From Candidatus Nanopelagicales bacterium (GTDB taxonomy: Bacteria > Actinomycetota > Actinomycetes > S36-B12), in contig JAURQC010000031.1 in the NCBI GenBank assembly GCA_030836325.1, positions 1-17,745 of the forward strand: a DNA stretch of 17,745 nucleotides. Reading direction: 5' to 3'. The notes below the pieces were generated by a model. It saw only the letters and a list, made by a program, of their open reading frames with translations. It had not been told where the DNA came from and ran no database searches. Below, piece by piece: positions 1,527 to 16,658 of the stretch. Position numbers and translations under genes: made by a program. Each line of letters opens with the position of its first letter. The stretch's first letter is position 1.

Positions 1527-2861
1527 ATGAACGCCGAGGCCGAACTCACCCAGGTGCTCGTCCAGAACGCCTGCGTTAACGACGGCTCAAACAACCCTGG
1601 CGAAGAGCGCAACGTCGACGAGTTACTCGCTGTTCTCGAGCCGTCAGCATCAGACATCGAAATAGTTGACTCAGCACCAGGGCGCCGATCAATGGTCGCC
1701 AAATGGCCAGGTTTCGACCCCGCCGCTCCGGCGCTGATGCTTCTCTGTCACACCGATGTCGTCCCGGCCGAGCCAGCCCGCTGGGACCGGGATCCTTTCG
1801 GAGCAGAGATACATGACGGGTTCATCTGGGGCCGAGGAACGATGGACATGCTCGGACATGTCGCAACCATGACGTTGGCCTTTCGAGATCTTGTTGCCAG
1901 CGGGCGGCGTCTCCCTGGCGATGTCATTCTTGCCGCCGTTGCCGATGAAGAGGCGCTTGGCGGCATGGGAATGGGTCACCTCGTCCAAAAGCATGGCGAT
2001 CTTGTCAACGCCGACTGGGTTCTTACCGAATCGGGCGGAGTCAGATCAGGGCCTGCAGAAAGTCCACAGTTGGGTGTACTCATCGCAGAAAAAGGCACGT
2101 GGCGTGTCGCTCTTAACATCTCCGGGGAGCCTGGCCACAGTTCCCTCCCGTACGGAGTCGAGACTGTTCTCTCGATCGCTGCTGAGATCGTTCAACGTCT
2201 CAGCCAAGACAGCGGGCTCATTCACATCAGCGACGAGTGGCGCGAAGTGGTACGGCACGGCTGGAATCCACAGGCAGCCGAGGTAATTACCGACCCGGCT
2301 CGCGTTGATGCGGTCATAGCTCGCATGCCGCGCTCGGTCGCTCGGGCCGTACATGCGCTCACTCGAATGACCATTGTCCCCACTCGCGTGGTCACAGATG
2401 GATCCTGGAACTCCATGAGCGCACAGGCCACGGTGGAGTTGGATGTCCGGACAGTGTCCGGGCAAGGGTGGGACGACATTGTCGAACACATCAGCTTCGT
2501 TCTTGGCGATGACTTATTTCAGCGGGTCGATATCGAACTCATCCGCTACGCGAATGCCACGCGCTCACCTATCGACACCCAATTGTGGGGGCTGCTGCAG
2601 GAGTGCACCCGCCAGATTGTTCCTGACGCTTCTCTAGTGCCAACGTTCGCCTCAGGATGTACCGACGCGAGGTTCATGCGTGAACGAGGAGCTACTGCCT
2701 ACGGGTTTGGGCTCTACAGCACACAGCTAAACGCCCAAGAAGTCCCGATGATGCTGCATGGTGACAACGAACGCGTCGACTTGGAAAGCCTTTCGCTCAT
2801 GCGGAGGCTGTGGTCAGAGGTTTTCGATGGGCTGGCACACCGCCCACCTCACTCCAGGTAG
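1527..2861 (+). CDS. M20-family metallopeptidase/amidohydrolase
   Basis: This is a 444-residue protein matching the M20/M25/M40 family, which hydrolyses peptide or amide bonds with two zinc ions. Visible metal ligands and motifs are LCHTDVVP (His75), WGRGTMDMLGH (Asp107), AVADEEALGG (Glu141 proposed general base and Glu142 ligand), a third-ligand region VLTESGG, and a late LHGDNE (His411). The central dimerisation domain fits the family length. The usual DMKG is DMLG here. There is no signal peptide, so it should be cytoplasmic. Its 3' end overlaps the convergent sulfotransferase gene by 13 bp. It could trim the RiPP, degrade leader fragments or confer immunity; none is shown by sequence. The Shine-Dalgarno sequence before ATG 1527 is weak. 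Confidence 0.9.
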   Translation: MNAEAELTQVLVQNACVNDGSNNPGEERNVDELLAVLEPSASDIEIVDSAPGRRSMVAKWPGFDPAAPALMLLCHTDVVPAEPARWDRDPFGAEIHDGFIWGRGTMDMLGHVATMTLAFRDLVASGRRLPGDVILAAVADEEALGGMGMGHLVQKHGDLVNADWVLTESGGVRSGPAESPQLGVLIAEKGTWRVALNISGEPGHSSLPYGVETVLSIAAEIVQRLSQDSGLIHISDEWREVVRHGWNPQAAEVITDPARVDAVIARMPRSVARAVHALTRMTIVPTRVVTDGSWNSMSAQATVELDVRTVSGQGWDDIVEHISFVLGDDLFQRVDIELIRYANATRSPIDTQLWGLLQECTRQIVPDASLVPTFASGCTDARFMRERGATAYGFGLYSTQLNAQEVPMMLHGDNERVDLESLSLMRRLWSEVFDGLAHRPPHSR

Positions 2862-3715
2862 CCGAAGCGGCGCATCATTTCGGCGTGCTCAACCTCGATC
2901 CTGTCGATGAGTTCACGCTCAAGTTCAGAAGCCCAAGCAGCGACTTCGCCTCGCCGAAAAAACACGCGGTCAGGTGCGGCTGCTTCTACGAAGCCGTGAA
3001 CGATTTCAGCGACCGCAAGTCGCTCAAAAGAACAGGCTTCAACTGCTGCACTCACTGCCGTTTCGTCAGCCGCAACTCCTAGCCAACGGGCTAGGCCAGT
3101 CACCGTGGTAATCGGATCTGCAGCCAGGTCCTCGTACCGGAGTACAAGCGTTGGAAGGTCGTCTTGCTCAGTCCAGGACTGCACATGGGACGACCAATTG
3201 CCAGGATGAAAGCGATGGTCGTCATCAAGCCGAACCGGAACATCAACCCCCCCGGTCGCCATGATGTCCACTGCGTCCTGGGGGCTGTGACCGATGTGAT
3301 GCGCCCAGCTCACAGCTACCGCTCTAGGGTCACGAATGATGTAGATGGCCTTCGCATCGGGCGGTTGCCAGTTCACCGGATACCCGTCAGCGACTGGAAG
3401 CCAAGCCGCGTGAGTTTTTCGCAGAACACCTTGATCGGCCTCTGCGCGGTCAGCCAGGGCCCAACCGAGACGCTGGAAGCCGTGGGCCGCCACATCATCA
3501 ATATCCGACACCGACAAACCCAGGCCTCGCATCAGATCATCACTTGCGTGGCCTTCCGACCCAAGCCGATTGATATCGGGTGGATGCCCGGTGCGAAGCG
3601 CCTGGGCCAGACTACGAACCCAAGTGTTCCCAGACTTCGGATACGACGCACACCAAACAGTCCGGCTACGAGGCGTCGCCCCATCCCCTTGCTCATCGTG
3701 CGTTGACTTCATCAC
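2849..3715 (-). CDS. PAPS-dependent sulfotransferase
   Basis: This 288-residue cytosolic-type sulfotransferase should transfer sulfate from PAPS to a hydroxyl or amine. The 5'-phosphosulfate-binding loop is SYPKSGNTW (residues 24-32). The probable catalytic His is in LRKTHAAW (His102). The 3'-phosphate-binding region is YIIRDPRAVAVSWAHH (125-140), followed by LRYEDL and the late FFRRGEVAAW motif, so all key elements are present. The start GTG at 3715 overlaps the stop of the kinase-like gene as GTGA; an ATG directly follows in frame. It is the last gene of the leftward arm. By context it probably modifies the RiPP, whose core offers five Thr and one Ser and no Tyr; a small-molecule substrate cannot be excluded. 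Confidence 0.9.
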   Translation of the reverse strand: MMKSTHDEQGDGATPRSRTVWCASYPKSGNTWVRSLAQALRTGHPPDINRLGSEGHASDDLMRGLGLSVSDIDDVAAHGFQRLGWALADRAEADQGVLRKTHAAWLPVADGYPVNWQPPDAKAIYIIRDPRAVAVSWAHHIGHSPQDAVDIMATGGVDVPVRLDDDHRFHPGNWSSHVQSWTEQDDLPTLVLRYEDLAADPITTVTGLARWLGVAADETAVSAAVEACSFERLAVAEIVHGFVEAAAPDRVFFRRGEVAAWASELERELIDRIEVEHAEMMRRFGYLE

Positions 3716-4521
3716 ATCAGCTCCGAGAAAGCGGTCTCGATCATGCCTGCAAGTACCGGTGGTGAGCTCCGCCGCACTACGGCTTCGTCACTGCTAATCG
3801 GTCGAAGCACTCGAACCCCCGGCACAGCGGGAACACACGCTGGCGGCTGGTCTGAACCATTTACAAGAGGGGGAACGGGGCTCGTAGCTAAGCGCTCGGC
3901 GAGAAGGTCAACACCCTCAGACCCCTGAATGACTGCCTCACGCAAAGCCAGTCTCCGCGACAAGACCACAACGCCACCAAGGCGACCCGTTCGGGTGGGC
4001 GAGCACTGGATCTCGACGCGGTCCCGGCCGGAGATAGCTGCGCTCAGCCGGCTGCTCTCCACCCCAAGAGCAACTGATCGGTCAACAGTGACCACGTCAC
4101 CAAAACGGACAGGGACGCCATCGTCACCCCACCCAACGACGCCATCTGAAGTAAGGGCCCATCCTCGCTTCATCATTGCTAAGGCGAGAACGGAGCATCC
4201 GGTTCGGGGTGCACCCGTCAAGATGACCGTACGTCCGCCTCGCTCAACGCAGGACCCGTTCATTGCCGTGAGTCCGTTCGCTCGAAGCCACTGGCCTGTA
4301 GCCCACGTTCCCAGTTGGCCAAGGACCTGGTCGCGGCTCTTCTGGTCTGGGCCGGACACGATGACAGCCTCGGCAGAGACCTCCGTTGAGCCGAGTTCAG
4401 GAAGGTCAAGTTTGACTGATCGAGACAGCCGGCGAAAACCAGGCATCGGACCGCGCACTGGGGCTGACCCGTCGCGAAACTCGACAGGCAGAACGATTGA
4501 CGAAGTGGGATCAGCGACCAC
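3712..4521 (-). CDS. HPr-kinase-like protein with degenerate Walker A
   Basis: This 269-residue protein resembles HprK-type kinases found in RiPP clusters. The segment LTGAPRTGCSVLALAMMKRG (residues 101-120) aligns with the HprK P-loop followed by the 'RG-x-x-L' strand, and WALTSDGVVGW takes the place of the acidic DD motif. The Walker A lysine is replaced by Cys109 (codon TGC), and the first Asp of the DD pair is Ser. HprK-like enzymes in lasso-peptide clusters phosphorylate Ser in the peptide; this one may be inactive, use a different nucleotide mode or only bind peptide. Start GTG 4521 overlaps the TfuA gene by 11 bp. The remainder (about 1-95 and 135-269) matches nothing I recognise. Family assignment is moderate. 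Confidence 0.65.
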   Translation of the reverse strand: MVADPTSSIVLPVEFRDGSAPVRGPMPGFRRLSRSVKLDLPELGSTEVSAEAVIVSGPDQKSRDQVLGQLGTWATGQWLRANGLTAMNGSCVERGGRTVILTGAPRTGCSVLALAMMKRGWALTSDGVVGWGDDGVPVRFGDVVTVDRSVALGVESSRLSAAISGRDRVEIQCSPTRTGRLGGVVVLSRRLALREAVIQGSEGVDLLAERLATSPVPPLVNGSDQPPACVPAVPGVRVLRPISSDEAVVRRSSPPVLAGMIETAFSELM

Positions 4522-5938
4522 GAGACATCAGCGGTTCGCCGTCGTCAAAGAACCGAACCCCTTCGCCTACATCAGGTAGCAGACCTGTTCCGAACAACGC
4601 CTGGAACGCTCTCACCGAAGTCTGGATCGTGGCGACCAACTCAGCGACGGATCCGAGCTCGTTTCGTTCGACGTATTCGATGAAGTCTTCAGGGATTTCC
4701 CAATCTGATAGCGACACATGAGTGGCGATCGCCTGCTGTGGGGTGATTTCACCCTCCACGACGACAGAACTCGCAAGCGATTCCTGAAGCGCGGCAGCAT
4801 GCTTGACCTCGTCGTACCGACCAGACCGTCGAAGTTCGTCGAGAAACAACCTCGTGATTACCCCGTGTTGGGTTTGACCGAGGTGACTGTATTCAATGCG
4901 CCTCACTAGCGCTTCGCGAACAATCATCTCGCGCAGATGATTGGCGTCAAGATCAAGTTCTTGTGCTCGTATGTTCAGTTCATCATCTGTGACTTCTAGG
5001 CGTTCGCAAAGAGCTGCGCGGGCGGCCTCCAATTCGGACTCTGTTGGAGCCCCTCCGAACCAGTGACCCATCCATGCAAGCGCGTTCCGTTGTCGGGCGA
5101 CGCTCATCACTTCTTCGTAATCAGCTTCGTTGATCGCTGCGTAACGGCGAATCCGATCGAAGGTGACCGGTAGCCCGTCGCTGGATTCCACAATCACATC
5201 CCGAGACAAAACCGCTTGGAACACCCCCGACATGACAGTGCCAGGTCGACGCTCAGCGGGCGGGGCATCGGCGGGAAGGTTGCGCATTTTTTTGAGCAGC
5301 GCAATTGCGTCACGTCGTTTCGGGTCGAGCTCTTGGGCACGCGTCTTAAAGAATTCGCGCAAAAATCCAACCTCTTGAGCGCCGACACCTAGCTCGACAG
5401 CATCAACAAGTGAGTCGGCCAGCCTCCGCTCTGGGAACCACCGTTGCTCCTGTCGGCGGATCAGTTCGTTGGACAGGTCGTTTCCGATGAGACCCTCAGC
5501 CGCAGCTGCGGTGAGCACAGCTCGGATCGTCACCATCGCATCTGAAAGCGGACGGAATCCTGAAGATTCATCGGAGTGAGTAAGAGCTACGTCAGCATCG
5601 TTCTCCAATTTTCCACTCGCGAAGCCCTCGAAAATCTCGCCAACCCCCAGCATTCCGTACGGGGCACACTCTGCGGCCCGCAGCGCTCCCATGCTGCTCG
5701 AACCGAGGACCCATGCCCCGCCGTCCATGGCGTAGAGCAGCTCCTTGTGGAACACGGACATGTTCTGCAAGAACGTCCCGTCGACCAGGCCGATGGCGTG
5801 CGGGCGATACCTGCGCGTTGCGCCAAGCACATCACCCATTGCCGCCGGAGGAAGAAAGATTGCTTCTGGCAACAGGGCAACGGCTTCTTCGCGCGACAAC
5901 GACGGGCCGAGGAAGACCACTTGCGCCCGGTCGTTCAC
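4511..5938 (-). CDS. TfuA-domain protein with long C-terminal extension
   Basis: The 475-residue protein begins with a TfuA core (about residues 5-215). It shows VFLGPSLS, PHAIGLVDGTF, GSSSMGALRAAECAPYGMLG and a later acidic DADVALTH, the family hallmarks. TfuA proteins partner YcaO enzymes; in thioamide-forming systems TfuA is thought to deliver sulfur. The C-terminal 260 residues are charged and helical-looking and I cannot assign them. I chose GTG 5938 because it overlaps the YcaO stop as GTGA and has GGAGA just upstream; a TTG at 5968 would lengthen it by 10 residues. Its immediate coupling with YcaO supports a joint function on the precursor peptide. Confidence 0.88.
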   Translation of the reverse strand: MNDRAQVVFLGPSLSREEAVALLPEAIFLPPAAMGDVLGATRRYRPHAIGLVDGTFLQNMSVFHKELLYAMDGGAWVLGSSSMGALRAAECAPYGMLGVGEIFEGFASGKLENDADVALTHSDESSGFRPLSDAMVTIRAVLTAAAAEGLIGNDLSNELIRRQEQRWFPERRLADSLVDAVELGVGAQEVGFLREFFKTRAQELDPKRRDAIALLKKMRNLPADAPPAERRPGTVMSGVFQAVLSRDVIVESSDGLPVTFDRIRRYAAINEADYEEVMSVARQRNALAWMGHWFGGAPTESELEAARAALCERLEVTDDELNIRAQELDLDANHLREMIVREALVRRIEYSHLGQTQHGVITRLFLDELRRSGRYDEVKHAAALQESLASSVVVEGEITPQQAIATHVSLSDWEIPEDFIEYVERNELGSVAELVATIQTSVRAFQALFGTGLLPDVGEGVRFFDDGEPLMSRGR

Positions 5939-7158
5939 GCCGTCTCCAACCGATAGTCGTCGACCCAAGCCTGACCCCGTTCACCCACCGCCGCGTACGA
6001 AAACATGTACCCCTCGAGGCCCGGAACGATCACTCGGACAACCTGCACAGGGTCATCGGGAGATGTGTGCCGGATCACCAAGATCTGAGAAAAGCCAGCC
6101 GAGCGAAGCATCGTGGCAGCTCGCTCAAGGTCGCCTTCGACGCTTCCGGTGCCGAGGTTGACATCGTTGTCGAAGACTCCCTCAACGGACGTCGGTGTGC
6201 TTACCGTCGACGACGTTGCCGCTGCTCGCTGACTCTCGAACATGTCATCACGCGCCCCAGACACGATGAGGCAACGCCCCTGCGCTGCTTCAGTGACCGC
6301 TCGCACCAACGCAGCGGATGCGGATAACGACGCGCCTGCTCCTTTGAACGATCCAGTTCGACCGCCGGGAACGTCATGTAGATAGGCGACCACAATCGGA
6401 ATACCGATTTCGGTTGTGGCATCCACAACTTCAAGTCGCAACCCGGCTGCCTCGATGCGATCAGCAACCGAGGGCTCAACAGCTCGGAGACGCGCCATGC
6501 CGTCAAGATGCGGGCGATCACCCACATAAGTGGTCAGTGTCATCCCGTCTCGCTCAACGACCTCCATAAGACCACTCAAAATGGCCTCCAGGACGTGTGC
6601 CCCGCTTGCCAAACCGTTCGAACCAGTGATGAAGGGCCGGTATGACCCGTCACCAATCAGCGACACTGCGACAAGGCCATCAGGAACCCAGACCTCAGTC
6701 CCGGCGATGATGTCCCAGGAAGGCGTCCATCGGATCGGCACATCAGGCGTCCACAGCGACCCCTTCGCCTGCGGGCACAAAGATCCGTCCACAGTGACGA
6801 CGCCACGCCGGCGGAGTTCATTCTGACTAGCGAGGACTGAGGCGATTTCCAAGTGTTCCCAAACCGCCTGTTCGCAGCACTCCATGACCGCGCTCACCCA
6901 ACTGGCGTCCGGACTAACCCCTTTGCCGCTGCCGCTCGCAAGGGTTCGTCCCTGCGGCTTAATCGCCATGTGGACCGGAAGCCCAATGCGGTCAAAGCCC
7001 GTCAGGTGGGCGACTCGCGTAATCCCGTATGCGCCGAGATGTTGAGACAGCTCCCCCCGCAGATCGGAGGCTTCTCTCGAACGGAGACCCGAAGAGGTCA
7101 CCAAGGTTCGTAGAGGCTGCTCGTTGACAGCCAGCAGATGATCAAGATTCAACGTCAT
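5935..7158 (-). CDS. YcaO-domain ATP-dependent peptide-modifying enzyme
   Basis: This 407-residue protein has the YcaO ATP-binding signatures: SGSGKGVSPDASWVSAVMECCEQ (SGKG at 77-80, Glu93, Glu96), TGSNGLASGAHVLEAILSG (Asn181) and LMEVVERDG (Glu199, Glu202), then ALVRAVTEAAQGR (Arg286, Glu290, Gln293). YcaO enzymes activate backbone amides with ATP to form azolines, amidines or, with TfuA, thioamides. The C-terminus lacks the PxPxP tail of classical azoline cyclodehydratases, and no E1-like or ocin-ThiF partner is present in the window. It therefore fits the TfuA-partnered type. Start ATG 7158 is preceded by AAGAAAGAG. It lies 129 bases downstream of the precursor peptide in the same direction, separated by a hairpin-plus-T-run. 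Confidence 0.95.
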   Translation of the reverse strand: MTLNLDHLLAVNEQPLRTLVTSSGLRSREASDLRGELSQHLGAYGITRVAHLTGFDRIGLPVHMAIKPQGRTLASGSGKGVSPDASWVSAVMECCEQAVWEHLEIASVLASQNELRRRGVVTVDGSLCPQAKGSLWTPDVPIRWTPSWDIIAGTEVWVPDGLVAVSLIGDGSYRPFITGSNGLASGAHVLEAILSGLMEVVERDGMTLTTYVGDRPHLDGMARLRAVEPSVADRIEAAGLRLEVVDATTEIGIPIVVAYLHDVPGGRTGSFKGAGASLSASAALVRAVTEAAQGRCLIVSGARDDMFESQRAAATSSTVSTPTSVEGVFDNDVNLGTGSVEGDLERAATMLRSAGFSQILVIRHTSPDDPVQVVRVIVPGLEGYMFSYAAVGERGQAWVDDYRLETA

Positions 7159-7260
7159 GGAGACTCTTTCTTAGACAGAGTCACCTCTGCAAATCCACGT
7201 CGGGTCAGCAGGCTCGTAAGCCGGCGTCACCATGGAGTTGGTTCGTTTTGGCTGCTCGTC

Positions 7261-7285
7261 AAAAACAGCCGACGCAGCTACGGCT
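7261..7285 (-). terminator. Candidate attenuator between precursor and YcaO
   Basis: On the minus strand, 2 bases after the precursor stop, AGCCG (7285-7281) can pair with CGGCT (7271-7267). The stem is followed by G and five Ts (7265-7261), as in an intrinsic terminator. The stem is only 5 bp, so it would be leaky. A downstream CAGCC (around 7250-7254) can instead pair with GGCTG, giving a competing fold. A partial terminator here would make much more precursor message than enzyme message, a common need in RiPP operons. Confidence 0.45.
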
Positions 7286-7287
7286 AA

Positions 7288-7542
7288 TCAGGCTGCAACA
7301 GCTGCTGCGGCTGCGGGGACCGCGGCCGGCACTGCCGAAGTCGCAGCAGTCGTGGTCGTGCCAGCACCGCTAACGCCTTCAAGGTTTGAGGTGTGGGCGT
7401 TCACATCGGCGTGCGACGGCACGTCAACTCCGTGGTCACGCAGCACGGCAGCGCGCTCTTCGGCGCTCCCAGCTTCGGTCACCTTCGCGTGGAGATCAGG
7501 GTTGTCGTTAATGGCTTTTGCGGCGGCTACGTATGAATTCAT
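7288..7542 (-). CDS. RiPP precursor peptide, Nif11/NHLP-like leader
   Basis: The product is 84 residues. Residues 1-60 resemble Nif11/NHLP leaders: amphipathic VAAAKAINDNPDLHAKV, then SAEERAAVLRDHGVDVP, ending NLEGVSGA, a double-glycine-type site (Gly59-Ala60) suited to a C39 peptidase. The core, residues 61-84, starts GTTTTAATSAVP and ends AAVPAAAAAVAA; it contains only Gly, Thr, Ala, Ser, Val and Pro, with no Cys. ATG 7542 has a GTGAG Shine-Dalgarno and a strong promoter (7575-7603). It heads the leftward operon ahead of YcaO and TfuA, and the oppositely oriented export genes include a C39 transporter. The leader assignment is by motif only. The product is unlike any core I recall, though the Ala-rich tail faintly recalls thioviridamide-type cores. 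Confidence 0.85.
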   Translation of the reverse strand: MNSYVAAAKAINDNPDLHAKVTEAGSAEERAAVLRDHGVDVPSHADVNAHTSNLEGVSGAGTTTTAATSAVPAAVPAAAAAVAA

Positions 7543-7574
7543 GGCGTCTCACTTTCATGACGTTTGGGATGCCG

Positions 7575-7603
7575 ATACTAAAACGCATTGCCGGCGTCGT
7601 CAA
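7575..7603 (-). promoter_or_regulatory. Sigma-70-like promoter of the precursor operon
   Basis: On the minus strand, TTGACG (7603-7598) and TAGTAT (7580-7575) are separated by exactly 17 bases, a near-consensus match. The predicted start point near 7568 leaves a leader of about 26 bases with the Shine-Dalgarno sequence before ATG 7542. The promoter lies 22 bases from the IS boundary, so the insertion left it intact. Confidence 0.7.
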
Positions 7604-7705
7604 GGAAATCTCTCCAAAGATCAGGTGAGGTGAGCCCTCCGTGGTGGTCCAGTCGTTCTGCGTCTCTTGATGCCCGGTTTCCGGGCAGGAAGAATCAGCA
7701 ACGGC

Positions 7706-7993
7706 ATGACTTCGAACAAGCGACGGCGGCACACGCGATATCAGATCATCCGCAAGCTCGCCTAGGGCAACAAGCTCCTCGCGTCGGGCCGAGAGCTCGA
7801 CGAGGTGTGCCGACATCTCGAGATCGCCGAGTCGACGTGGAACCGGTGGCTGGCCCAGTACGGCGGCATGAAAGCCTCCGACGCGAAACGGCTCAAGGAG
7901 CTCGAGGGCGAGAACGCCCGACTGAAGCGTCTGCTGGCTGACGCCGAGTTGGACAAGGACATGCTGCGGGAGATCGCGTCGGGAAACTTCTGA
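7706..7993 (+). pseudogene. IS3 transposase OrfA, amber-interrupted
   Basis: The conceptual product has an N-terminal helix-turn-helix region and the segment WNRWLAQYGGMKASDAKRL, then a leucine-zipper-like stretch (KELEGENARLKRLLADAE), typical of IS407-group OrfA, which binds the IS ends. Codon 20 is TAG (7763-7765), inside RRRHTRYQIIRKLA-stop-GNKLLASG, where relatives have a sense codon such as Glu or Gln. A GTG at 7805 could restart translation, but would lose the first part of the DNA-binding domain. The frame ends at TGA 7991-7993, where a programmed -1 frameshift to OrfB is normal in this family. Confidence 0.85.
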
Positions 7994-8855
7994 CCCCGAA
8001 CCGCAAGCGCAGTGCCGTCGCAGTGCCGTCAAGGTGCTGCGCGACCGGTTCGGGGTCTCGGAACGACGAGCCTGCACCGTGGTCGGCATTCACCGCTCCA
8101 CGCAGCGACTGACGCCGCCGCCGGTCACCGCCGAGGAAGCCGAGCTGCGCGCCTGGCTGCGCAAGTTCTCCATCGACCGGCCCCGGTGGGGATGGCGACG
8201 CGCCGCGAAGATGGCCCGCAAAGCCGGTTGGAAGGTCAACAACAAGCGCATCCGCCGGCTGTGGCGCGACGAAGGGCTGCGTGTGCCTCAGCGGCGCCGC
8301 AAGAAGCGCCTCACCGGCATTGGCGTCCAGGTCGGCGCGATGTCACCGATCCGACCGAACGTGATCTGGGCGATGGACTTCCAGTTCGACACCACCGCCG
8401 ACGGCCGCACCCTGAAGATGTTCAACATGATCGACGAGTTCACCCGCGAGTGCTTCACGATCGAGATCGATCGCTCCATCGATGCCGACGCCGTCGTTGC
8501 GGTCTTGGACCGCCTCGCCATGCAACGCGGTGCGCCGGTCTACGTGCGCTTCGACAATGGTCCCGAGTTCGTCGCGCACGCCGTCAACGACTGGTGCCGC
8601 TTCAACGGCACCGGGGCGATGTTCATCGACCCCGGCTCGCCATGGCAGAACGCCTGGATCGAGACCTTCAACGGACGACTCCGCGACGAGCTGCTCAACT
8701 CGTGGCGCTTCGACAGCCTCCTCGAAGCCCGCGTGATCATCGAGGACTGGCGGCTCGACTACAACGCCAACCGACCCCACTCCGCCCACGGCGACCTCAC
8801 CCCAACCGAGTTCGCCCTACAGTGGACCACGACCCACCAACCCCAAGCCGCATAG
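7990..8855 (+). pseudogene. IS3 transposase OrfB (DDE domain), frame-broken
   Basis: The product is an IS3 integrase-type transposase catalysing strand transfer of the element. Catalytic residues are visible: Asp in WAMDFQFD, Asp in VRFDNGPEF and Glu in SPWQNAWIETFNGRLRDELL; the usual C-terminal HGDLTPTEFA follows. The long frame is open from 8034 to 8855. The normal upstream start of OrfB (LTPNRKRSAV, frame beginning 7990) is in another frame, because of an 11-bp tandem duplication at 8009-8030. Removing one unit joins RKRSAV to KVLRDRFGVS in frame. OrfAB fusion is therefore not expected, and the element is probably immobile unless helped in trans. Confidence 0.85.
8009..8030 (+). repeat. 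11-bp tandem duplication inside orfB
   Basis: GCAGTGCCGTC occurs twice without a spacer (8009-8019 and 8020-8030). Eleven bases is not a multiple of three, so the extra copy shifts the OrfB frame. Collapsing it to one unit restores a continuous family-like protein, which shows it is a secondary mutation rather than part of the normal frameshift site. Confidence 0.9.
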
Positions 8856-8905
8856 CGACTGGACCACTCATGGGGTCCCCCTCACAGGCACAGGTGCGGC
8901 TTCAG

Positions 8906-9054: not shown

Positions 9055-9588
9055 ATGAAACATCCCACCGGCCTCGAGGTTCACGACAACGTGTTCGCTG
9101 GCGCAGACGCCGTCATCGATGCAATCCGGGATCACCCTGAGTGGCGACGCTCGCCTGTAGGAACCTCTCCTACAGAGAGTGATATTCGTACCAGCGAGTC
9201 ACTGTTCCTTCCCTTCATCTCGTACTCGCACCCGGAGTCAATTCACCAGTTCGCGAAGTCCGTTGCAAACTTGCTGACCGACTATGCGCAACGGTATGCA
9301 GTTCAAGTCAGAAACTTTGAGCCGATTTCGTTTAACCGGTATTCACCTGGCCAGGATTTCAGAGCGCATACGGATTATTTCGAAGGGTCAAACCGAGTGA
9401 TCTCGGCGATCGCGTACCTCAACACGATCAATGACGGCGGAATGACAAACTTCATCTACCACGGCAAAGAAGTTGACGCAGTTGCTGGCCGGGTCGCTGT
9501 CTTCCCGTCGAACTACCTGTTTGCGCACGCTGCACTTCCACCAACCACCGATACGAAGTACTCGGCTGCGTTCTGGGTCCGCGGATGA
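9055..9588 (+). CDS. 2OG-Fe(II) oxygenase, prolyl-4-hydroxylase-like
   Basis: The 177-residue single-domain protein shows the iron triad of the 2-oxoglutarate/Fe(II) oxygenases: His105 and Asp107 in FRAHTDYF and His158 in LFAHAALP, with Lys168 (TKYSAAFW) positioned to bind 2-oxoglutarate. The context FNRYSPGQDF..H.D, IAYLNTINDGG and VAVFPSN is that of the prolyl-4-hydroxylase-like branch. It probably hydroxylates a side chain; the precursor core has two Pro and several Val and Ala, so the RiPP is the natural substrate candidate. It is the first large gene of the rightward operon, 40 bases ahead of the HlyD-like gene. The Shine-Dalgarno sequence is poor. Confidence 0.88.
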   Translation: MKHPTGLEVHDNVFAGADAVIDAIRDHPEWRRSPVGTSPTESDIRTSESLFLPFISYSHPESIHQFAKSVANLLTDYAQRYAVQVRNFEPISFNRYSPGQDFRAHTDYFEGSNRVISAIAYLNTINDGGMTNFIYHGKEVDAVAGRVAVFPSNYLFAHAALPPTTDTKYSAAFWVRG

Positions 9589-9628
9589 GACCAAACTGGA
9601 AACCACACCAAGTCGAAGGAGCGTCAAC

Positions 9629-10441
9629 GTGACACTGGAACCAGGACAGCAGCGACCCCAACCCTCGAAGCCGGCCGGTCAAAGCGGGCCCGAGAGTCTC
9701 GACGAAATCCTCAGCACCACAAAGCCACGCGGATGGATAGCACTTGCCGCAGTGCTGATCGCCGTTGTTTTGGTTGGAGTCTGGTCAGTCATCGCAACCC
9801 TCCCGCAGCAGCTCACGGTTAACGCAGCAGTCTCAGTGACCAATTTCAGGACTTCAATAGTTGCCCCCGAGGCAGGGACCATTTCGGTGCAAGCCAATGT
9901 GGGAGACACAGTCAAGAAGGGCGACAAAATTGCGCTCATCACCACTTACGCAGACGCCAAAACAATCTCAGTAGCTGCCCCGTCAAGTGGATTAGTTGAC
10001 AGCATCTTGGTGAACCAGGGCCAAGGAGTCGAACCGGGAACTCAAATCGGATCAGTGCTTGACGCCGAAGGGCGCGCTTCCGAAATACGGTTCGTTACGT
10101 TCCTTCCTGCAAACGAAGCGATCCTCTTCGACGTCGGGGACGAGGTCGATGTGATCGTCACCAATGTCGAAACGTCGAAACGGGCAGCGGTGAAAGCCCG
10201 GGTCGTGCTGGTCGGTGCCAGCCCAGCTGACCTTGAAGTTGCAACTGTCACGACTGGGAGTCCATCTTTCGCACGCGAACTCAGCGACCGAGGAGGGGGC
10301 GTCGTCTACGAGGTCCGAATGTCGGTCCAGGGGGGGGCAAAGACCGTCAAAGCCTCCGAGATTCTTCCTGGCGAGATCGTTGAAGTCGTCAACACCTACG
10401 ACGAACCCCATCCGATCGATCTGCTCTTCGGCGGGCGGTGA
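9629..10441 (+). CDS. HlyD-like secretion adaptor (NHLM system)
   Basis: This is a 270-residue membrane-fusion-type protein. A short cytoplasmic N-terminus is followed by one membrane helix (about 35-58, GWIALAAVLIAVVLVGVWSV). A lipoyl/barrel domain (IVAPEAGTISVQANVGDTVKKGDKIALI) and a C-terminal beta-rich part follow. It should link the ABC exporter to the cell envelope. I chose GTG 9629 because AAGGAG lies 7 bases upstream; the open frame itself extends further 5' but overlaps the oxygenase gene. Its stop overlaps the next gene's GTG as GTGA. The length and gene order (adaptor, peptidase-transporter, second transporter) match NHLM bacteriocin export sets. Confidence 0.9.
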   Translation: MTLEPGQQRPQPSKPAGQSGPESLDEILSTTKPRGWIALAAVLIAVVLVGVWSVIATLPQQLTVNAAVSVTNFRTSIVAPEAGTISVQANVGDTVKKGDKIALITTYADAKTISVAAPSSGLVDSILVNQGQGVEPGTQIGSVLDAEGRASEIRFVTFLPANEAILFDVGDEVDVIVTNVETSKRAAVKARVVLVGASPADLEVATVTTGSPSFARELSDRGGGVVYEVRMSVQGGAKTVKASEILPGEIVEVVNTYDEPHPIDLLFGGR

Positions 10442-12669
10442 CAGATCCGATGAACACAGCTCCCGAGCAAAGTCGCAGCTCACCGCAGATCTCAACGTCG
10501 CACCGCGTCAAGGTTCCCTCAATGCTGCAACAGGCAGCGGTCGAGTGCGGCGCCGCAAGCCTTGGCATGATCCTGGCCCACCTCGGACGTTGGGAGACCC
10601 TCGATCACCTCCGCACAGCGTGCGGTGTCTCGCGGGATGGGTCCACTGCGATCAACATCGTCCAGGCTGCTGAGTCGTACGGGCTCGAGGGTGAAGGCCA
10701 CCGAGGCGAAGTAGCGGACCTGGCCGGTCTGACGATGCCAGCAATTATCTGGTGGAGGCGTTGCCACTTCATGGTGTTAGAAGGTGCCACGAAAGGCACT
10801 TTCTACGTCAACGACCCTGCCCGCGGCGGCTATGCGTTGTCGACCGAGGACTTCGCCGAGGGCTACTCCGGGGCCGCGATCACCTTTACTCAGTCGTCTA
10901 AATTCACACCGGCTGGACACAAGTACCGCACTTCTTCCGCTCTCTGGAGCCGACTGAAGCACTCGCGCGCAGGCGTCAACTTCATGATTCTTGCCGGGGT
11001 GCTCGCAATGCTGCTCGGCCTTGTCACTGCCCCACTGAGCCAAATCTTCATCAATGACGTTCTTTCATTGGAACGCAACGACATCATTCCGGGCCTTGTG
11101 ACGGTCCTGATCATAGTTGGCCTCTTCCGTTCAGGGCTCACATTGCTCGAGTACGGCGTCATCGCAAGGCTCCAGATGAAAGTGACGGTTGTTGGGTCAT
11201 CTGACTTCCTTACCAGGCTGATTCGTTTGCCTCTGATGTTTTACCTTGAGCGGTCGGCAGGTGACCTCTCCCAGCGGGTCGGGTACAACGGCCAAGTAGC
11301 GCAGTTGCTGGGCAACCAGATGGCGAGCGCAGGAATCGCCGTCCTTGCGGCACTCGGCTACGCGTTGCTGCTCCTGTACTACAACGTGACGATCGGGCTT
11401 GTCGTGCTCGCGTTGTCTCTGATCAATGTCATCGTGCTGAAACTCGTGATGGCGAAGCGAACCATGGCCCAGAGTCGGCTGATTCGTAAACAGAACCAAC
11501 TCCGAGGGACGACCACGAGTTCCATCCAGGGCATCGAGACCATCAAGTCGACCGGGATGGAAGACGACGTATTTACGACACTCGCTGGTCAGCAAAGCGA
11601 CTACATCTCCACCCAGGCGACTCTGGCACCGACCACCGCTTTGCTGAGCGCTACGCCCGTACTTCTCTTCGCGTTGACAAGCGCTTCAATTCTGGTCCTT
11701 GGCGGATACTTCACGATCACCGGTTCGTTCACCGTTGGTGGTCTTCTTGCAATGCAGGTGCTCTCGGCAAATCTTAACTCGCCTGTCCAGACCTTGATGA
11801 GTACCGGTAGTCAACTCCAAGTGATCACTTCCAGTCTTCAAGCCCTCGACGACGTCACAGCCAACGAGCCGGACATCCGCTTCGCGCGACCGTCAATCAC
11901 AGCGCCCTCCGATATTCCAGATCTCGCAGGGCGAGTCACCTTTGACAATGTCACTTTCGGGTATAGCCGTCTTGCAGAACCTCTCATCGAGAACTTCGAA
12001 CTCGATATCAAACCCGGGTGTCGGGTTGCTCTAGTCGGGGGATCAGGCTCTGGGAAAACCACGATCGCCAACCTTGCCGCTGGCCTTTTCACGCCATGGA
12101 GCGGCCAGGTTCTTCACGACGGCAAACCGCTATCGGAGTATCCAAGCGGTGTCATTGAGAATCACCTGACCAAAGTCGATCAATCCATCGTGCTCTTCGA
12201 AGGAACGGTTCGCGACAACGTCACACTTTGGAACCCAATGATTCCTGACAACGAGGTGCAACTCGCTCTCGCAGACGCGCAAATACTCAAGGATGTGCTC
12301 GCCCGAGAGGGTGGCCTCGACGCTGTAGTCGAAGAGAACGGAAGGAATTTCAGCGGAGGCCAATGCCAACGGTTGGAAATTGCGCGAGCCCTTGCGACCA
12401 CACCACAGGTGATCGTCCTCGACGAAGCAACTAGCGCACTTGACGACATCACAGAGCAGCTTGTTGACCAAGCTCTGCGACGGAGGGGACTCACCTGCCT
12501 CATCGTCGCTCATCGCTTGTCGACGATTCGTGATGCCGATGAGATCATCGTCCTTGGGCGAGGCGGCGTCGTTCTTGAAAGAGGCAGTCACAACCAACTG
12601 ATGAGCAGCGGCGGCCACTATGCGCGAATGGTTAGCGACGCCGGAGAGGGCGGAAGCGTTGGCTCCTGA
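10438..12669 (+). CDS. C39-peptidase ABC transporter (leader-cleaving exporter)
   Basis: The 743-residue protein combines three modules. The N-terminal C39 peptidase has Cys37 in QQAAVECGAASLGM, His110 in RCHFMVLEG and Asp126 in VNDPARGG. Residues about 175-460 form a six-helix membrane domain. The ATPase has Walker A GGSGSGKTT (about 534-542), signature FSGGQCQRLEIARAL, Walker B VIVLDEATSALD and the H-loop IVAHRLS. Such exporters cut after a double-glycine-type site and pump out the core. The precursor here offers Gly-Ala at 59-60. GTG 10438 overlaps the adaptor stop as GTGA; ATG 10450 is an alternative start. All catalytic residues look intact. Confidence 0.96.
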   Translation: MTDPMNTAPEQSRSSPQISTSHRVKVPSMLQQAAVECGAASLGMILAHLGRWETLDHLRTACGVSRDGSTAINIVQAAESYGLEGEGHRGEVADLAGLTMPAIIWWRRCHFMVLEGATKGTFYVNDPARGGYALSTEDFAEGYSGAAITFTQSSKFTPAGHKYRTSSALWSRLKHSRAGVNFMILAGVLAMLLGLVTAPLSQIFINDVLSLERNDIIPGLVTVLIIVGLFRSGLTLLEYGVIARLQMKVTVVGSSDFLTRLIRLPLMFYLERSAGDLSQRVGYNGQVAQLLGNQMASAGIAVLAALGYALLLLYYNVTIGLVVLALSLINVIVLKLVMAKRTMAQSRLIRKQNQLRGTTTSSIQGIETIKSTGMEDDVFTTLAGQQSDYISTQATLAPTTALLSATPVLLFALTSASILVLGGYFTITGSFTVGGLLAMQVLSANLNSPVQTLMSTGSQLQVITSSLQALDDVTANEPDIRFARPSITAPSDIPDLAGRVTFDNVTFGYSRLAEPLIENFELDIKPGCRVALVGGSGSGKTTIANLAAGLFTPWSGQVLHDGKPLSEYPSGVIENHLTKVDQSIVLFEGTVRDNVTLWNPMIPDNEVQLALADAQILKDVLAREGGLDAVVEENGRNFSGGQCQRLEIARALATTPQVIVLDEATSALDDITEQLVDQALRRRGLTCLIVAHRLSTIRDADEIIVLGRGGVVLERGSHNQLMSSGGHYARMVSDAGEGGSVGS

Positions 12670-15202
12670 ACTACCACGAGAAGTAGAGCTCCATCCCGGA
12701 GATGCGCCGATCGGCGTGCGCACCGGCACTGCGGACGTATTCGCAGTTCGGTCAGATGGTTTGCGCCAACCACTCGCAACTCTCGGTGAAGCGCGCTGCG
12801 CCTTTCCTGCCAGTGATACGCCTCTGTTGGTCGTCGCCCGGCTGAACTCTTCACTGGAGACAGTCGAGCTCTCTGACGAAGCCGACCGAGCTGCTGTGCT
12901 TGCCGGCTTCGTCGCAGCCCTGCTGCCAATCGCTCCCGAAGTCGAGGGAGCCGACCTTGAGGCATTTCCATCTCAACTCGAGCAAGCGGTTCGTCGCCTA
13001 CAGGACAATGAACGGGCACACCGACAACAGTCCATTCAGGCTGCATTGACCCGTTCTGAGGACCAACTCACTGCAGTCACGGCTCGAATCACCTTTTCGG
13101 CATCCACACTTACCGATCCCCACATGGCACTCGGGCTTCCGCCTTTGATCGAAGTCCTTCACCACATCGGTGACGCCGACGGCTTTCAAGTAACGCCGCC
13201 GACAAGCAGCGAGTTGCGGTCCTCCGACGACCCGTTGCGGTTGACTGCCCATAAGTCTGGTGTCCGGTACAGGAAGGTGACCCTCAGCAAAGGCTGGCAG
13301 CGCGTGGCGTCACAGAACCTTCTCGGCGGGATCGTGGAAGACGGAAAACCGACACCTGTGGCGCTTCTCAAACATGGCCGCCGGTACCTCATGCAGCGAC
13401 CCGGGGACATCCGGCCAACACCGATCAGCGACGCAAACCTCGCAGCCATTGCGCCGGTGGCATACGAGTTCTATGCGCCACTGCCGGCTGACCGTCCGAT
13501 CACCATCGGTGACGTCCTGCGACGGGGGATGCACAACAGTCGCAGGAACTGGCTCCTAGCGGCAACGATGGGACTGGCCGTAGCGGTCCTCGGGTTGATT
13601 ACCCCACTGCTCACAAACGCAACCGTTGGGTCAGTCATACCTCAAGGTCGCGAGTCGATACTCGTGCAAGTTGGCATCGCCCTCCTGATCGCAGCAGGCA
13701 CCTCGTTCGTGTTCACTCTCGTGCAGAGCTACGCAATCGCCGCTCTGTCCCAGAGCGCAACGCGAAATATGCAGTCGGCGATGTGGGATCGGCTCCTAGC
13801 GCTACCTGCATCATTCTTCCGAAACTTCAGCAGCGGCGATCTCACAGTCCGAGTTTTAGCCGTCGACTCCCTGCAAAGCCTCGTCAGCGTGCAAGTGGTT
13901 TCGTCAGCTCTTGCCGCTGTTTTCGGACTCGTCAATCTCGTTCTGATGTTCAAGTACTCGCCGGCACTCGGTGTTGTAGCAAGCATCTTCTTGTTGCTCA
14001 CGGTCATTGTGCTCCTCCTCGGCATCCGGTACGTGGCCCGCTTCAGCACACAGTCACTCACTGCGACGAGAGAAGCCAACGGATTCCTCGTGCAGTTACT
14101 GCGAGGCGTCATGAAAGTCCGCCTCGCCGGCGCCGAAGGACGAATGGAAGCTGAGTACCTGGAGCTAACCCGTCGTCAGGCCGACGCTTCTTCGAACCAG
14201 ACCTTGGTCATCGGACGAATCACTTCCTGGTTCATCTTCGCCACCGCCGCAGCGCCTGCTCTTTTCTACACAGTGATCGCTATCGACTGGACGACCGACG
14301 GGGCCAGTCTCTCCACCGGCGAGTTCCTCGCCTTTTCAAGCGCATACGGCGCCGCCTTCGCAGCAATTTCCGGGCTGTCGAACCTCGTGTCACCGATCGC
14401 CAACGCCGGGCCGACACTCCAACTTTTGCGTCCCATCATGGACGAACTTCCCGAGAGTGCCGGAAGGGCACAAGACCCGGGCATGTTGAGCGGTGCGATT
14501 GAGCTGTCGAACATTGAGTTCAGATACACCACAGACGGGCCATTGATCCTGCGTGGCCTATCTCTCAGCGTCGCTCCCGGCGAGATGGTGGCGCTCGTTG
14601 GCCCCTCCGGTGCCGGGAAATCGACAATCACCCGGCTGCTCCTGGGTTTCGATACCCCGGAGCAAGGCACGGTGAGCTACGACGGGCGAGATCTACGAGA
14701 TCTAGATCCAACATTAGTTCGAAGCCAAATGGGAGTCGTAGTGCAGGAGGGCTCTATCACGCGCGGCAGCATCATGCGCAACATCCTCGGATCCACAGTC
14801 GGCGATGAACAAGCCGCTTGGCAGGCCGCCAACGCAGCTGCACTGGCAGATGACATCGCAGCGATGCCCATGAAGATGCAGACCATCGTTGATCCGGCGA
14901 ACGTCTCGGGTGGACAGGCCCAACGAATTCTGCTGGCCCGGGCGCTCGTGAGATCTCCGCGGATCTTGCTGCTCGACGAGGCAACAAGTGCTCTGGACAA
15001 CGCAGCCCAGGCTCAAATTACCCAGGCGATGGACAACCTGGCTGCAACACGAATTGTGATCGCCCACCGGCTTTCAACAATCCGAGCTGCCGACCGAATC
15101 GTTGTCATCAATGCGGGCACTGCCGTCGAAACCGGCACCTACGATGAGCTCATCGAAAGAGGCGGCATTTTCGCCGATCTGGTCAAGCGCCAAGTTGCCT
15201 GA
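12620..15202 (+). CDS. NHLM-type ABC transporter ATP-binding/permease protein
   Basis: This 860-residue protein has a long N-terminal cytoplasmic region (about 1-310) without the Cys-His-Asp of a C39 peptidase. A membrane domain (about 315-600) and an ATPase with GPSGAGKST, VSGGQAQRILLARAL, RILLLDEATSALD and IVIAHRLST follow. It matches the second, peptidase-less transporter that accompanies the C39 transporter in NHLM systems, and the two probably form a heterodimer. The frame overlaps the previous gene by 50 bases from ATG 12620. A TTG at 12659, preceded by GAGAGG, would reduce the overlap to 11 bases and is a realistic alternative start. It ends the rightward operon; I see no clear terminator after it. 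Confidence 0.93.
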   Translation: MREWLATPERAEALAPELPREVELHPGDAPIGVRTGTADVFAVRSDGLRQPLATLGEARCAFPASDTPLLVVARLNSSLETVELSDEADRAAVLAGFVAALLPIAPEVEGADLEAFPSQLEQAVRRLQDNERAHRQQSIQAALTRSEDQLTAVTARITFSASTLTDPHMALGLPPLIEVLHHIGDADGFQVTPPTSSELRSSDDPLRLTAHKSGVRYRKVTLSKGWQRVASQNLLGGIVEDGKPTPVALLKHGRRYLMQRPGDIRPTPISDANLAAIAPVAYEFYAPLPADRPITIGDVLRRGMHNSRRNWLLAATMGLAVAVLGLITPLLTNATVGSVIPQGRESILVQVGIALLIAAGTSFVFTLVQSYAIAALSQSATRNMQSAMWDRLLALPASFFRNFSSGDLTVRVLAVDSLQSLVSVQVVSSALAAVFGLVNLVLMFKYSPALGVVASIFLLLTVIVLLLGIRYVARFSTQSLTATREANGFLVQLLRGVMKVRLAGAEGRMEAEYLELTRRQADASSNQTLVIGRITSWFIFATAAAPALFYTVIAIDWTTDGASLSTGEFLAFSSAYGAAFAAISGLSNLVSPIANAGPTLQLLRPIMDELPESAGRAQDPGMLSGAIELSNIEFRYTTDGPLILRGLSLSVAPGEMVALVGPSGAGKSTITRLLLGFDTPEQGTVSYDGRDLRDLDPTLVRSQMGVVVQEGSITRGSIMRNILGSTVGDEQAAWQAANAAALADDIAAMPMKMQTIVDPANVSGGQAQRILLARALVRSPRILLLDEATSALDNAAQAQITQAMDNLAATRIVIAHRLSTIRAADRIVVINAGTAVETGTYDELIERGGIFADLVKRQVA

Positions 15203-15323: not shown

Positions 15324-15451
15324 AGCTACGCCGCCGAACGATCCCACACCGCTCACGGCGACCCCACGCCAACCGAGTTCCATCTAGCATGGTCCAAGAC
15401 CCACCAACCACAAGCTGCATAGCGACTGGACCACCAAACGGGACCCTCTCA
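15324..15451 (+). mobile_element. Diverged IS3-family 3'-end remnant (right)
   Basis: A frame in this segment reads ERSHTAHGDPTPTEF then HLAWSKTHQPQAA-stop, clearly related to the OrfB end of the internal IS (SAHGDLTPTEFALQW, HQPQAA). The terminal repeat follows with CGACTGGACCACC and an end CTCTCA. It is diverged from the internal copy, unlike the left remnant, so it is from an older or different element. It accounts for most of the 290-base stretch between the transporter and the small membrane protein; the rest of that stretch holds nothing I can identify. Confidence 0.85.
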
Positions 15452-15923: not shown

Positions 15924-16658
15924 TCACATCGCAGACGTATATCTGGCAACCATCGCACCAGAAGACCAACCAGCAGCCGTCTGAACAGACACCTGGCTGA
16001 TTCCGCGTTTCAACGCGTGAACAGCCCAACCCCTACGCCACGCATGAGGAGACGGCGCATGCAACCGTTTCATTAACCGTTGAATGGCGTTCGACGACAT
16101 CCCCACCAAACACCCATCTGCCTGTGCTGGATGGCGTCGGATCAGACGACAGGCCTGATCCGACAACGGAGCCAAACGAGGCTTACCTGTCTTCGAAGTC
16201 CTGACAACAACGAACCTGTCAGACAGATTCACATCATCTCTAGAAAGCCGCGCAATCTCAGAAACCCTTAGCCCTGTGCTCCACAACAGTTCGACCACCA
16301 GAGCGTCTCTGACTCGCGTTCAGCGGCCTCTCACGGCCTTGTAGACGTCCTCTGTGACGGTTGGTTGTGAGGTTGGTCTCGTTGATGGCAACGGCACACG
16401 AGACCACCACACCCAACGAGGACCATCGTTCTCGATAGCCCATTTTCCGAACGCTCGGACTGCACGTGCTCTGGCACGTGCAGTCTCGCGAGATATCGAT
16501 TCAGACAGCCACAGTTTCACGGTCGCAAGATCGATGTCATCACCGTGAGCGGTCCGCAACTGGCAGAGGTATCGACGGTATCTGATCACTGTGGTTGGAG
16601 CGTGTCCTGTGAGTTGCCAGTCGGCAACGAACTCGTCCAAATAGTCGTCGAGTTCCAT
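15924..16658 (-). pseudogene. int: Tyrosine recombinase (island integrase), TGA-interrupted
   Basis: This is a site-specific recombinase of about 243 residues plus one internal stop. The N-terminal SAM-like DNA-binding domain (YLDEFVADWQLTGHAPTTV, then RYRRYL) is followed by a catalytic domain with Arg in STGLRVSEIA, Lys in RTSKTGKPR, His-X-X-Arg in SPHAWRR, Trp in AGWSSG and Tyr in VARYTSAM. The full catalytic set is present. TGA at 16322-16320 interrupts the same frame between VYKAVRGR and TRVRDALVVELL, so one base change separates it from an intact gene. I chose ATG 16658 because GGGAGT lies 4 bases upstream; TTG 16682 is less likely. It lies 135 bases from the right att repeat and is the probable integrase of the island. 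Confidence 0.9.

What the first reader, a model, noticed from the sequence alone, without database searches (positions are those of the whole stretch)
7288..7542. Precursor with Cys-free Thr/Ala/Val/Pro core behind a Nif11-like leader
The 84-residue gene heads an operon with YcaO-TfuA and sits opposite a C39 exporter. Its core (residues 61-84 after Gly-Ala) is GTTTTAATSAVP plus AAVPAAAAAVAA: four consecutive Thr, one Ser, two Pro and a poly-Ala end, and no Cys, His or aromatic residue. Known NHLP-linked YcaO products usually carry Cys or Ser/Thr for azoles, so this core suggests a different final structure.
Basis: partly seen in the sequence, partly recalled or inferred. Interest (0 to 1): 0.9.

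Follow-up and report, generated by a model that had tools for sequence, protein, structure and literature searches.

The report
Alanine-tailed thioamide peptide precursor, aquatic Actinobacteria
The short gene is a real precursor for a chemically modified, exported peptide, one of a large family in little-studied aquatic bacteria that share the front part and an alanine-rich end but differ in the middle; the neighbouring enzymes suggest a sulfur-containing (thioamide) product, which has not been demonstrated.

Summary
Confirmed: 7288-7542 (-) encodes an 84-aa RiPP precursor. It starts an operon with YcaO, TfuA, an HprK-like protein and a sulfotransferase, divergent from a 2OG oxygenase and an NHLM-type HlyD/C39-ABC/ABC exporter. 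The gene order recurs in related actinobacterial MAGs. Of 85 genomes of one family, 9 hold the precursor; the same 9 hold the >=45%-identical YcaO, with a precursor directly upstream in 9 of 9. Against relative L001, synonymous sites are near saturation while amino acids are held, in the core too. The leader is a divergent Nif11 type: this sequence is under both curated cut-offs, but 75 of 80 family members match TIGR03798 at E<=0.05. A profile search gave 137 proteins, itself included (120 listed); 119 fit a G[GA] cleavage pattern, with 109 distinct cores, 102 without Cys. Anatomy: conserved leader, hypervariable middle, Ala-rich tail. Lack of Cys is no argument against YcaO action, since YcaO-TfuA makes backbone thioamides. 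Best reading: leader-guided thioamidation, probably with hydroxylation and sulfation, then C39 cleavage after Gly-Ala and export. Nif11 plus TfuA is published for cyanobacteria and proteobacteria; the actinobacterial family, tail, enzyme set and off-cluster precursors look new.

The parts
7288..7542 (-). Precursor peptide: residues 1-60 Nif11-like leader ending V-S-G-A, residues 61-76 variable core (GTTTTAATSAVPAAVP), residues 77-84 Ala-rich tail
5935..7158 (-). YcaO (407 aa); best NCBIfam match is the McrA-glycine thioamidation YcaO model (157 bits; cut-off 365)
4511..5968 (-). TfuA (485 aa): residues 16-232 match M. acetivorans TfuA 6xp8; no match found for about 250 C-terminal residues
3712..4521 (-). 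HprK-like protein (269 aa), P-loop without Lys (GAPRTGCS); likely non-catalytic partner of the sulfotransferase
2849..3715 (-). Sulfotransferase (288 aa), loop SYPKSGNTW present (its role in PAPS binding is recalled)
1527..2861 (+). M20 peptidase, convergent at the end of the operon; among 85 genomes full-length close relatives only in 6 with this cluster
9055..9588 (+). 2OG-Fe(II) oxygenase; its matches among solved structures are prolyl 4-hydroxylases and one uncharacterised protein
9593..10441 (+). HlyD-type membrane fusion protein of the NHLM kind (start codon uncertain)
10438..12669 (+). C39 peptidase/ABC exporter (NHLM ABC1 model 815.7 bits, cut-off 853.3)
12620..15202 (+). Second ABC exporter subunit (NHLM ABC2 model 691.7 bits, cut-off 709.4)
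7621..8886 (+). IS3-type insertion element (ORFs 7805-7993 and 8034-8855; family recalled from the translation) between precursor and oxygenase; not part of the system; ends approximate

Best explanation
The gene encodes the precursor of an exported, thioamidated RiPP. Residues 1-60 are a Nif11-type leader that recruits YcaO-TfuA. YcaO activates backbone amides of the core with ATP and TfuA supplies sulfide, giving one or more thioamides; the Ala/Val tail shared by most of the family is the most likely site, the Thr-Thr segment the alternative. The prolyl-4-hydroxylase-like enzyme probably hydroxylates the core (Pro72/Pro76 first choice). The sulfotransferase, helped by the P-loop-deficient HprK-like protein, probably sulfates a Thr, Ser or new hydroxyl. 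The C39 domain of the NHLM-type exporter cuts after Gly59-Ala60 and the HlyD/ABC/ABC complex exports residues 61-84. The M20 peptidase may trim or inactivate the product. Shown: gene content, conservation, cleavage motif, selection on the core. Inferred: every chemical step, its site and order, and bioactivity (unknown; antibacterial or signalling).
For: Conserved gene order in L001-L003, G067, G005 and G045. Precursor and >=45%-identical YcaO in exactly the same 9 of 85 genomes, and 0 precursors in the 20 genomes with only more distant YcaO. TfuA in 10 of 85, 8 of them shared. Both halves of the precursor under protein-level constraint. G[GA] pattern in 119 of 120 listed proteins; mean column entropy 1.26 (leader), 2.77 (core), 1.37 bits (tail) in 80 rows. 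YcaO scores higher with the McrA-thioamidation model (157 bits) than with SagD (114); TfuA matches 6xp8, E 2.3e-28. No E1-like or dehydrogenase TOMM partner among the 10 window proteins scanned. Full-length M20 >=47% in 6 of 85 genomes, all with the cluster; next full-length match 31%. Full-length sulfotransferase >=44% in 5 of 85, all with the cluster. HprK-like ORF directly upstream of the sulfotransferase in 13 of 14 other loci, 10 of them beside a different YcaO; in the one such cluster read, which is cyanobactin-like, the sulfotransferase is fused to PqqD.
Against: No product is known. The thioamide is inferred from families only: the YcaO and TfuA thioamidation equivalog models score under their cut-offs. 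The oxygenase was not found in 2 of 7 close clusters (G002, G003), whose cores do contain Pro; HprK-like and sulfotransferase are absent from the G045 cluster; M20 and sulfotransferase close relatives are absent from 3 and 4 of the 9 precursor-bearing genomes. So these tailorings are not obligatory. Of 10 genomes with TfuA, G058 and G080 gave no precursor hit. The genomes are related, so co-occurrence counts are not independent. Part of the tail's conservation could come from the profile search itself; 17 of 119 cores have no AAA. In this window the IS element may have displaced the promoter.
Confidence: 0.72

Rival explanations
1. The YcaO makes azolines/methyloxazolines at Thr/Ser of the core rather than thioamides, a TOMM-like product without Cys.
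For: Thr, Ser and Cys together are 35% of the first eight core residues in 119 cores, nearly all of it Thr and Ser; YcaO also matches SagD at 114 bits, under the cut-off 219.
Against: Adjacent TfuA, a sulfide-delivery protein; no E1-like/ocin-ThiF partner and no dehydrogenase among the 10 proteins scanned; the thioamidation YcaO model scores best.
Confidence: 0.12
2. The YcaO-TfuA pair acts elsewhere (a ribosomal or metabolic protein) and the Ala-rich peptide is exported unmodified, as a class II bacteriocin-like peptide.
For: Off-cluster precursors exist (L025, L026), and a YcaO is reported to thioamidate a ribosomal protein (PMC13063428, start of abstract in the listing only).
Against: A precursor sits directly upstream of this YcaO in 9 of 9 genomes and both are missing together from the other 76 of 85.
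Confidence: 0.1
3. Thioamides are in the Thr-rich N-terminal half; the Ala tail is a follower (a recognition or export helix) and is trimmed, perhaps by the M20 enzyme. (This overlaps the best explanation, differing in the site.)
For: The tail is conserved while the middle varies, as expected of a recognition element; close M20 relatives occur only with the cluster; Asn thioamidation is known in the std pathway (PMC13174530, passages).
Against: A characterised thioamitide carries thioamides on Val, Met and Ala (PMC13185837, passages); more distant members keep only a short AAA or GAA end.
Confidence: 0.3

Closest known systems
TfuA-related clusters with Nif11-like precursors (Malit et al. 2021, PMC8120280; passages and sections 11 and 12 read)
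   Same: Nif11-like leader with GG-type cleavage motif beside YcaO-TfuA, transporters in one named case
   Different: Reported there in Desulforegula, Anabaena, Rhizobium, Simkania, Ruegeria; here Actinobacteria, with an Ala-rich tail and HprK-like, sulfotransferase, P4H-like and M20 genes
Nif11-derived peptides / prochlorosins (Haft et al. 2010, PMC2887384, passages; PMC10783134, listing only)
   Same: Conserved leader, GG-type site, hypervariable cores, paralogues, some away from the enzyme genes, NHLM-type exporter
   Different: YcaO-TfuA instead of LanM or a cyclodehydratase; cores Cys-poor and Ala-rich; [quoted passage not shown]
Thioamitides (thioviridamide-like; PMC8153245, PMC13185837, PMC6511847, passages)
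   Same: YcaO-TfuA; small aliphatic core with Ala residues
   Different: No core Cys for AviMeCys, no HopA1/phosphotransferase or Cys decarboxylase among the 10 proteins scanned, different leader and exporter
Mycobacterial YcaO-TfuA network 1 (PMC6511847, passages)
   Same: YcaO-TfuA with a sulfotransferase, Actinobacteria
   Different: Also a type III PKS; precursor not compared here
Lasso peptide HPr-kinase homologues (paeninodin type; PMC8498205, passages)
   Same: HprK-family protein in a RiPP cluster; a sulfotransferase gene also seen in some lasso clusters
   Different: Here the P-loop Lys is missing in 8 of 8 sequences; no lasso machinery among the 10 window proteins scanned

Membership tests
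Nif11-like leader RiPP precursors (TIGR03798 / PF07862) | This sequence reaches the curated profile cut-off | tested here: not met
   18.1 bits against 23.8 (Pfam) and 19.6 against 32.3 (NCBIfam)
Nif11-like leader RiPP precursors (TIGR03798 / PF07862) | Family members along the leader match the profile | tested here: met
   16 of 23 and 67 of 80 match PF07862, 75 of 80 match TIGR03798, all at E<=0.05, a lax limit; best 2e-6 and 2.3e-7; precomputed PF07862 labels on, for example, P0004 and P0011. So: Nif11-like, a divergent branch, not filed as a member by the curated cut-off
Nif11-like leader RiPP precursors (TIGR03798 / PF07862) | Double-glycine-type motif ending the conserved part, variable core after it | tested here: met
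   119 of 120 listed proteins fit my pattern (66 GA, 53 GG); the one left, P0089, has M-A-G-G there; entropy 1.26 then 2.77 bits
NHLM-type export system | HlyD, C39-ABC and second ABC subunit of TIGR03794/03796/03797 | tested here: inconclusive
   All three are the best NCBIfam match but under cut-off: 71.7/156.2, 815.7/853.3, 691.7/709.4 bits
YcaO-TfuA thioamidated RiPPs | Adjacent YcaO and TfuA with a linked precursor | tested here: met
YcaO-TfuA thioamidated RiPPs | Thioamide in the product | not testable with these tools
   needs expression and high-resolution MS
Thioamitides | Core Cys for AviMeCys and the dehydration/decarboxylation genes | tested here: not met
   no Cys in the core; no such genes among the 10 window proteins scanned
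TOMM (azole) peptides | E1-like/ocin-ThiF partner and dehydrogenase | tested here: not met
   none among the 10 window proteins scanned
Lasso-type HprK peptide kinases | P-loop with Lys | tested here: not met
   Lys absent in 8 of 8

The most novel reading that the evidence does not exclude
A prochlorosin-like combinatorial thioamide system: one YcaO-TfuA pair and exporter act on several leader-sharing precursors, some encoded far away among housekeeping genes, to give a library of Ala-tailed thioamidated peptides; and a P-loop-dead HprK-like protein with a sulfotransferase forms a portable peptide-sulfation module, used both here and in an unrelated cyanobactin-like YcaO system, so that the product is a sulfated thioamide peptide.
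Probability: 0.3. Interest if true: 0.75.

Novelty: new variant of a known kind. Interest (0 to 1): 0.55.

Why it matters
It extends Nif11-leader, YcaO-TfuA chemistry to uncultured aquatic Actinobacteria with a family of 137 proteins found here, and gives a natural alignment (109 distinct cores, one leader type, a shared tail) for asking what YcaO-TfuA needs in its substrate. The repeated pairing of a P-loop-deficient HprK-like protein with a sulfotransferase makes RiPP sulfation directly testable.

Tried and rejected
Chance ORF: rejected by homologues and by the synonymous/non-synonymous contrast. Antisense gene on the + strand (7232-7633): rejected, the frame open in the window has two stops in L001. 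M20 as a mere genomic neighbour: made less likely because full-length >=47% matches occur only in 6 cluster-bearing genomes of 85, although shorter stretches of 40-48% over roughly 100 residues occur elsewhere. HprK-like as an active peptide kinase: disfavoured by the missing P-loop Lys. Oxygenase tied to the Pro motif: not established; G002 and G003 have core Pro without the oxygenase, and n is small.

Led nowhere: the HprK-like model is poor (mean pLDDT 50); its PDB hits are weak (best E 4e-3) though the first 24 are all HprK/P. The TfuA model (pLDDT 58.5) had one significant PDB match, 6xp8, for the N-terminal part. TfuA catalytic residues could not be checked because the primary paper is not held. 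Literature: in the listings, and in the passages opened (also PMC11613949 and PMC9426513), I saw no description of this actinobacterial family; that covers only open-licence PMC papers and those terms, and not supplements. PMC9426513 reports Nif11-like leaders, YcaO and TfuA-like enzymes in sponge symbiont clusters without the details needed here. Weak hits G146 and G147 were not followed. G092 has a precursor-like ORF and exporter but no YcaO match on its 9-kb contig. G058 and G080 have TfuA and YcaO-like genes but no precursor hit; I searched the two fetched TfuA contigs (3.4 and 7.9 kb) again without a hit.

Full report
OBSERVATION. The ORF at 7288-7542 (-) has 84 codons with an ATG start. 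It is followed on the same strand by YcaO (7158-5935), TfuA (5968-4511), an HprK-like protein (4521-3712) and a sulfotransferase (3715-2849), these four with overlapping ends. On the other strand lie a 2OG-Fe(II) oxygenase, HlyD, a C39-ABC exporter and a second ABC subunit. An M20 peptidase (1527-2861 +) converges on the operon's end.

IS IT REAL. phmmer gave 23 proteins, the window's own among them (alignment); a profile of 37 sequences gave 137, of which 120 were listed, again with the window's own. Between the window and L001, synonymous sites differ at 0.81 (leader) and 0.86 (core), non-synonymous sites at 0.21 and 0.21. So the low-complexity core is held as protein, not as a by-product of base composition. 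This is one pair of sequences.

LEADER. Alone, the sequence is below the curated cut-offs for PF07862 and TIGR03798. Of 80 diverse family members 67 match PF07862 and 75 match TIGR03798 at E<=0.05; of the first 23, 16 match PF07862. I call it a divergent Nif11-like leader. 119 of 120 listed proteins fit my motif pattern, a hydrophobic or Asp/Thr residue, a small or polar residue, then G-[GA] (66 GA, 53 GG); the one that does not, P0089, has M-A-G-G at that place.

CORE AND TAIL. The 119 cores include 109 distinct ones; 102 lack Cys, 102 contain AAA, 94 have Thr within the first four residues. In the 80-row alignment, mean column entropy is 1.26 bits over residues 1-60, 2.77 over 61-76 and 1.37 over 77-84: conserved leader, hypervariable middle, Ala-rich tail. 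Ala is 15% of the first eight core residues and 68% of the last eight. The profile included the tail, so some of its conservation may be selection by the search; the 60-residue leader should carry most of the score, and 17 of 119 cores have no AAA. Distant members have short cores ending in TACAAA or TACGAA (L030-L032).

GENE ORDER. L001 has every gene of the window's cluster and no IS match there. In L002 and L003 the oxygenase was not found and there are two tandem precursors each (in L003 identical in all 276 bases compared). G067 and G005 have the set on two contigs each, with exporter genes running into contig ends; in G005 the oxygenase match is in two pieces. G045 lacks HprK-like and sulfotransferase together. 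In the more distant L030 only precursor, YcaO, TfuA, HlyD and the two ABC genes were found.

ASSOCIATION. Of 85 genomes of the family of G001, 9 have the precursor; the same 9, and no others, have YcaO at >=45% identity. In 9 of 9 a precursor is directly upstream of YcaO. Of the 20 genomes with only more distant YcaO none has it. If genomes were independent the chance would be 2.4e-12; they are related, so this is only a guide. TfuA was found in 10 of 85, 8 of them precursor-bearing; in the ninth precursor genome (G049) the contig ends within YcaO. In 394 genomes drawn from the class, 7 had a hit (at most 13 candidates per genome were scored in the rows shown), two of them weak and not followed. 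Of 99 relatives of G003, 9 had a hit: beyond those above, G116 has a precursor facing a TfuA-YcaO pair on the other strand (3' ends together), and G092 a precursor-like ORF and exporter without a YcaO match on the contig.

OFF-CLUSTER PRECURSORS. G067 carries two more precursor ORFs on contigs without a YcaO match, and its only YcaO match is at the cluster: one among genes resembling gltX, leuCD, gpsA and ddl (L025, whole contig), one with a GTG start near genes resembling an MFS transporter, holB/dnaX, tmk and topA (L026, first 14,000 of 18,474 bases) (gene names are my reading of the translations). Binning error in the MAG cannot be excluded. This resembles the trans-acting arrangement of prochlorosins (recalled).

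ENZYMES. YcaO scores best with the McrA-glycine thioamidation model (157 bits, cut-off 365) and less with SagD (114), and matches MJ1094 (6pe3) and other YcaO structures. TfuA residues 16-232 match 6xp8 (E 2.3e-28). Published work: TfuA hydrolyses ThiS thiocarboxylate to deliver sulfide to YcaO, and a thioamitide carries one thio-Val, one thio-Met and two thio-Ala (PMC13185837, passages); deletion of either gene abolishes the products of the thiostreptamide S4 cluster (PMC8153245, passages); the std pair thioamidates Asn (PMC13174530, passages). Hence thioamidation of this core needs no Cys. The 2OG enzyme's matches among solved structures are prolyl 4-hydroxylases and one uncharacterised protein (E about 2e-6 to 4e-6). 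The sulfotransferase has SYPKSGNTW, or in two sequences SFPKSGNTW, in 6 of 6.

HPRK-LIKE AND SULFOTRANSFERASE. The HprK-like protein has no Lys in its P-loop in 8 of 8 sequences. Of 21 genomes with a sulfotransferase match, 5 are the cluster's own, 2 are short weak matches and 14 are 32-39% identical; 11 of these 14 sit close to another YcaO. In 13 of the 14 loci an HprK-like ORF lies directly upstream; the fourteenth is cut by the contig end. For the ten YcaO-linked ones the single matches are weak (E 4.4e-4 to 0.11 in my ORF set; Pfam and NCBIfam gave no family for the two that I scanned) and rest on being the best match at the same place each time. None of the 12 whose letters I printed has a P-loop Lys. 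In L096-L098 the sulfotransferase is fused to a second HprK-like domain that does have GKS. The L083 cluster is cyanobactin-like (PatG-type S8 peptidase, ThcOx oxidase, fused YcaO) and its sulfotransferase ends in a PqqD domain over Pfam's cut-off, which implies a peptide substrate. I infer that the HprK-like protein is a partner of the sulfotransferase; this is not shown.

MECHANISM. Leader binding, thioamidation, then probably hydroxylation and sulfation, C39 cleavage at Ala60/Gly61 and export. Only the gene content, conservation, motif and selection are shown. Site of the thioamide: tail (my first choice) or Thr segment. Activity unknown.

COMPARISON. Nif11-like precursors in TfuA clusters were reported by Malit et al. 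(PMC8120280, sections 11 and 12) for cyanobacterial, proteobacterial and some other genera; the kind is thus known. The taxon, tail, tailoring set and off-cluster precursors were not in what I read. Supplementary figures were not read, so an actinobacterial example there cannot be excluded. The hosts of L001 and L003 are labelled uncultured Actinomycetales and Candidatus Nanopelagicales; the window's own host is not told. 'Aquatic' rests on those names and is inference.

CHECK.

Noticed in passing
window about 7621-8886 (IS3-type), copies of its end at 1234-1334 (100% over 101 bp) and 15326-15451 (80%): An IS3-type element sits in the divergent promoter region about 78 bp upstream of the precursor, and fragments of its end flank the cluster on both sides, suggesting mobility or past rearrangement; expression of the precursor may be affected.
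   Followed up: partly
L083, L084, L087-L095 (unnamed relatives): Eleven relatives have a different YcaO near a sulfotransferase; in ten an HprK-like ORF without P-loop Lys precedes the sulfotransferase (the eleventh is cut by the contig end). In L083, the one read in full, the cluster is cyanobactin-like and the sulfotransferase is fused to PqqD.
   Followed up: partly
L096, L097, L098: Sulfotransferases fused to an HprK-like domain with an intact GKS P-loop, preceded by a separate HprK-like ORF (without P-loop Lys in the two I printed, L096 and L098), in genomes where no YcaO match lay on that contig.
   Followed up: partly
window about 4514-5263 (-), TfuA residues about 235-485: A 250-residue C-terminal extension of TfuA, conserved in relatives, without a significant PDB match by sequence or (low-confidence) fold; could be a leader-recognition or partner domain.
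   Followed up: partly
L025:5580-5825, L026:439-687: Precursor ORFs among housekeeping genes, away from any YcaO match.
   Followed up: yes
window 15924-16298 (-) and 16320-16682 (-): Two neighbouring ORFs resembling pieces of a tyrosine recombinase/integrase downstream of the exporter (my reading of the translations).
   Followed up: no
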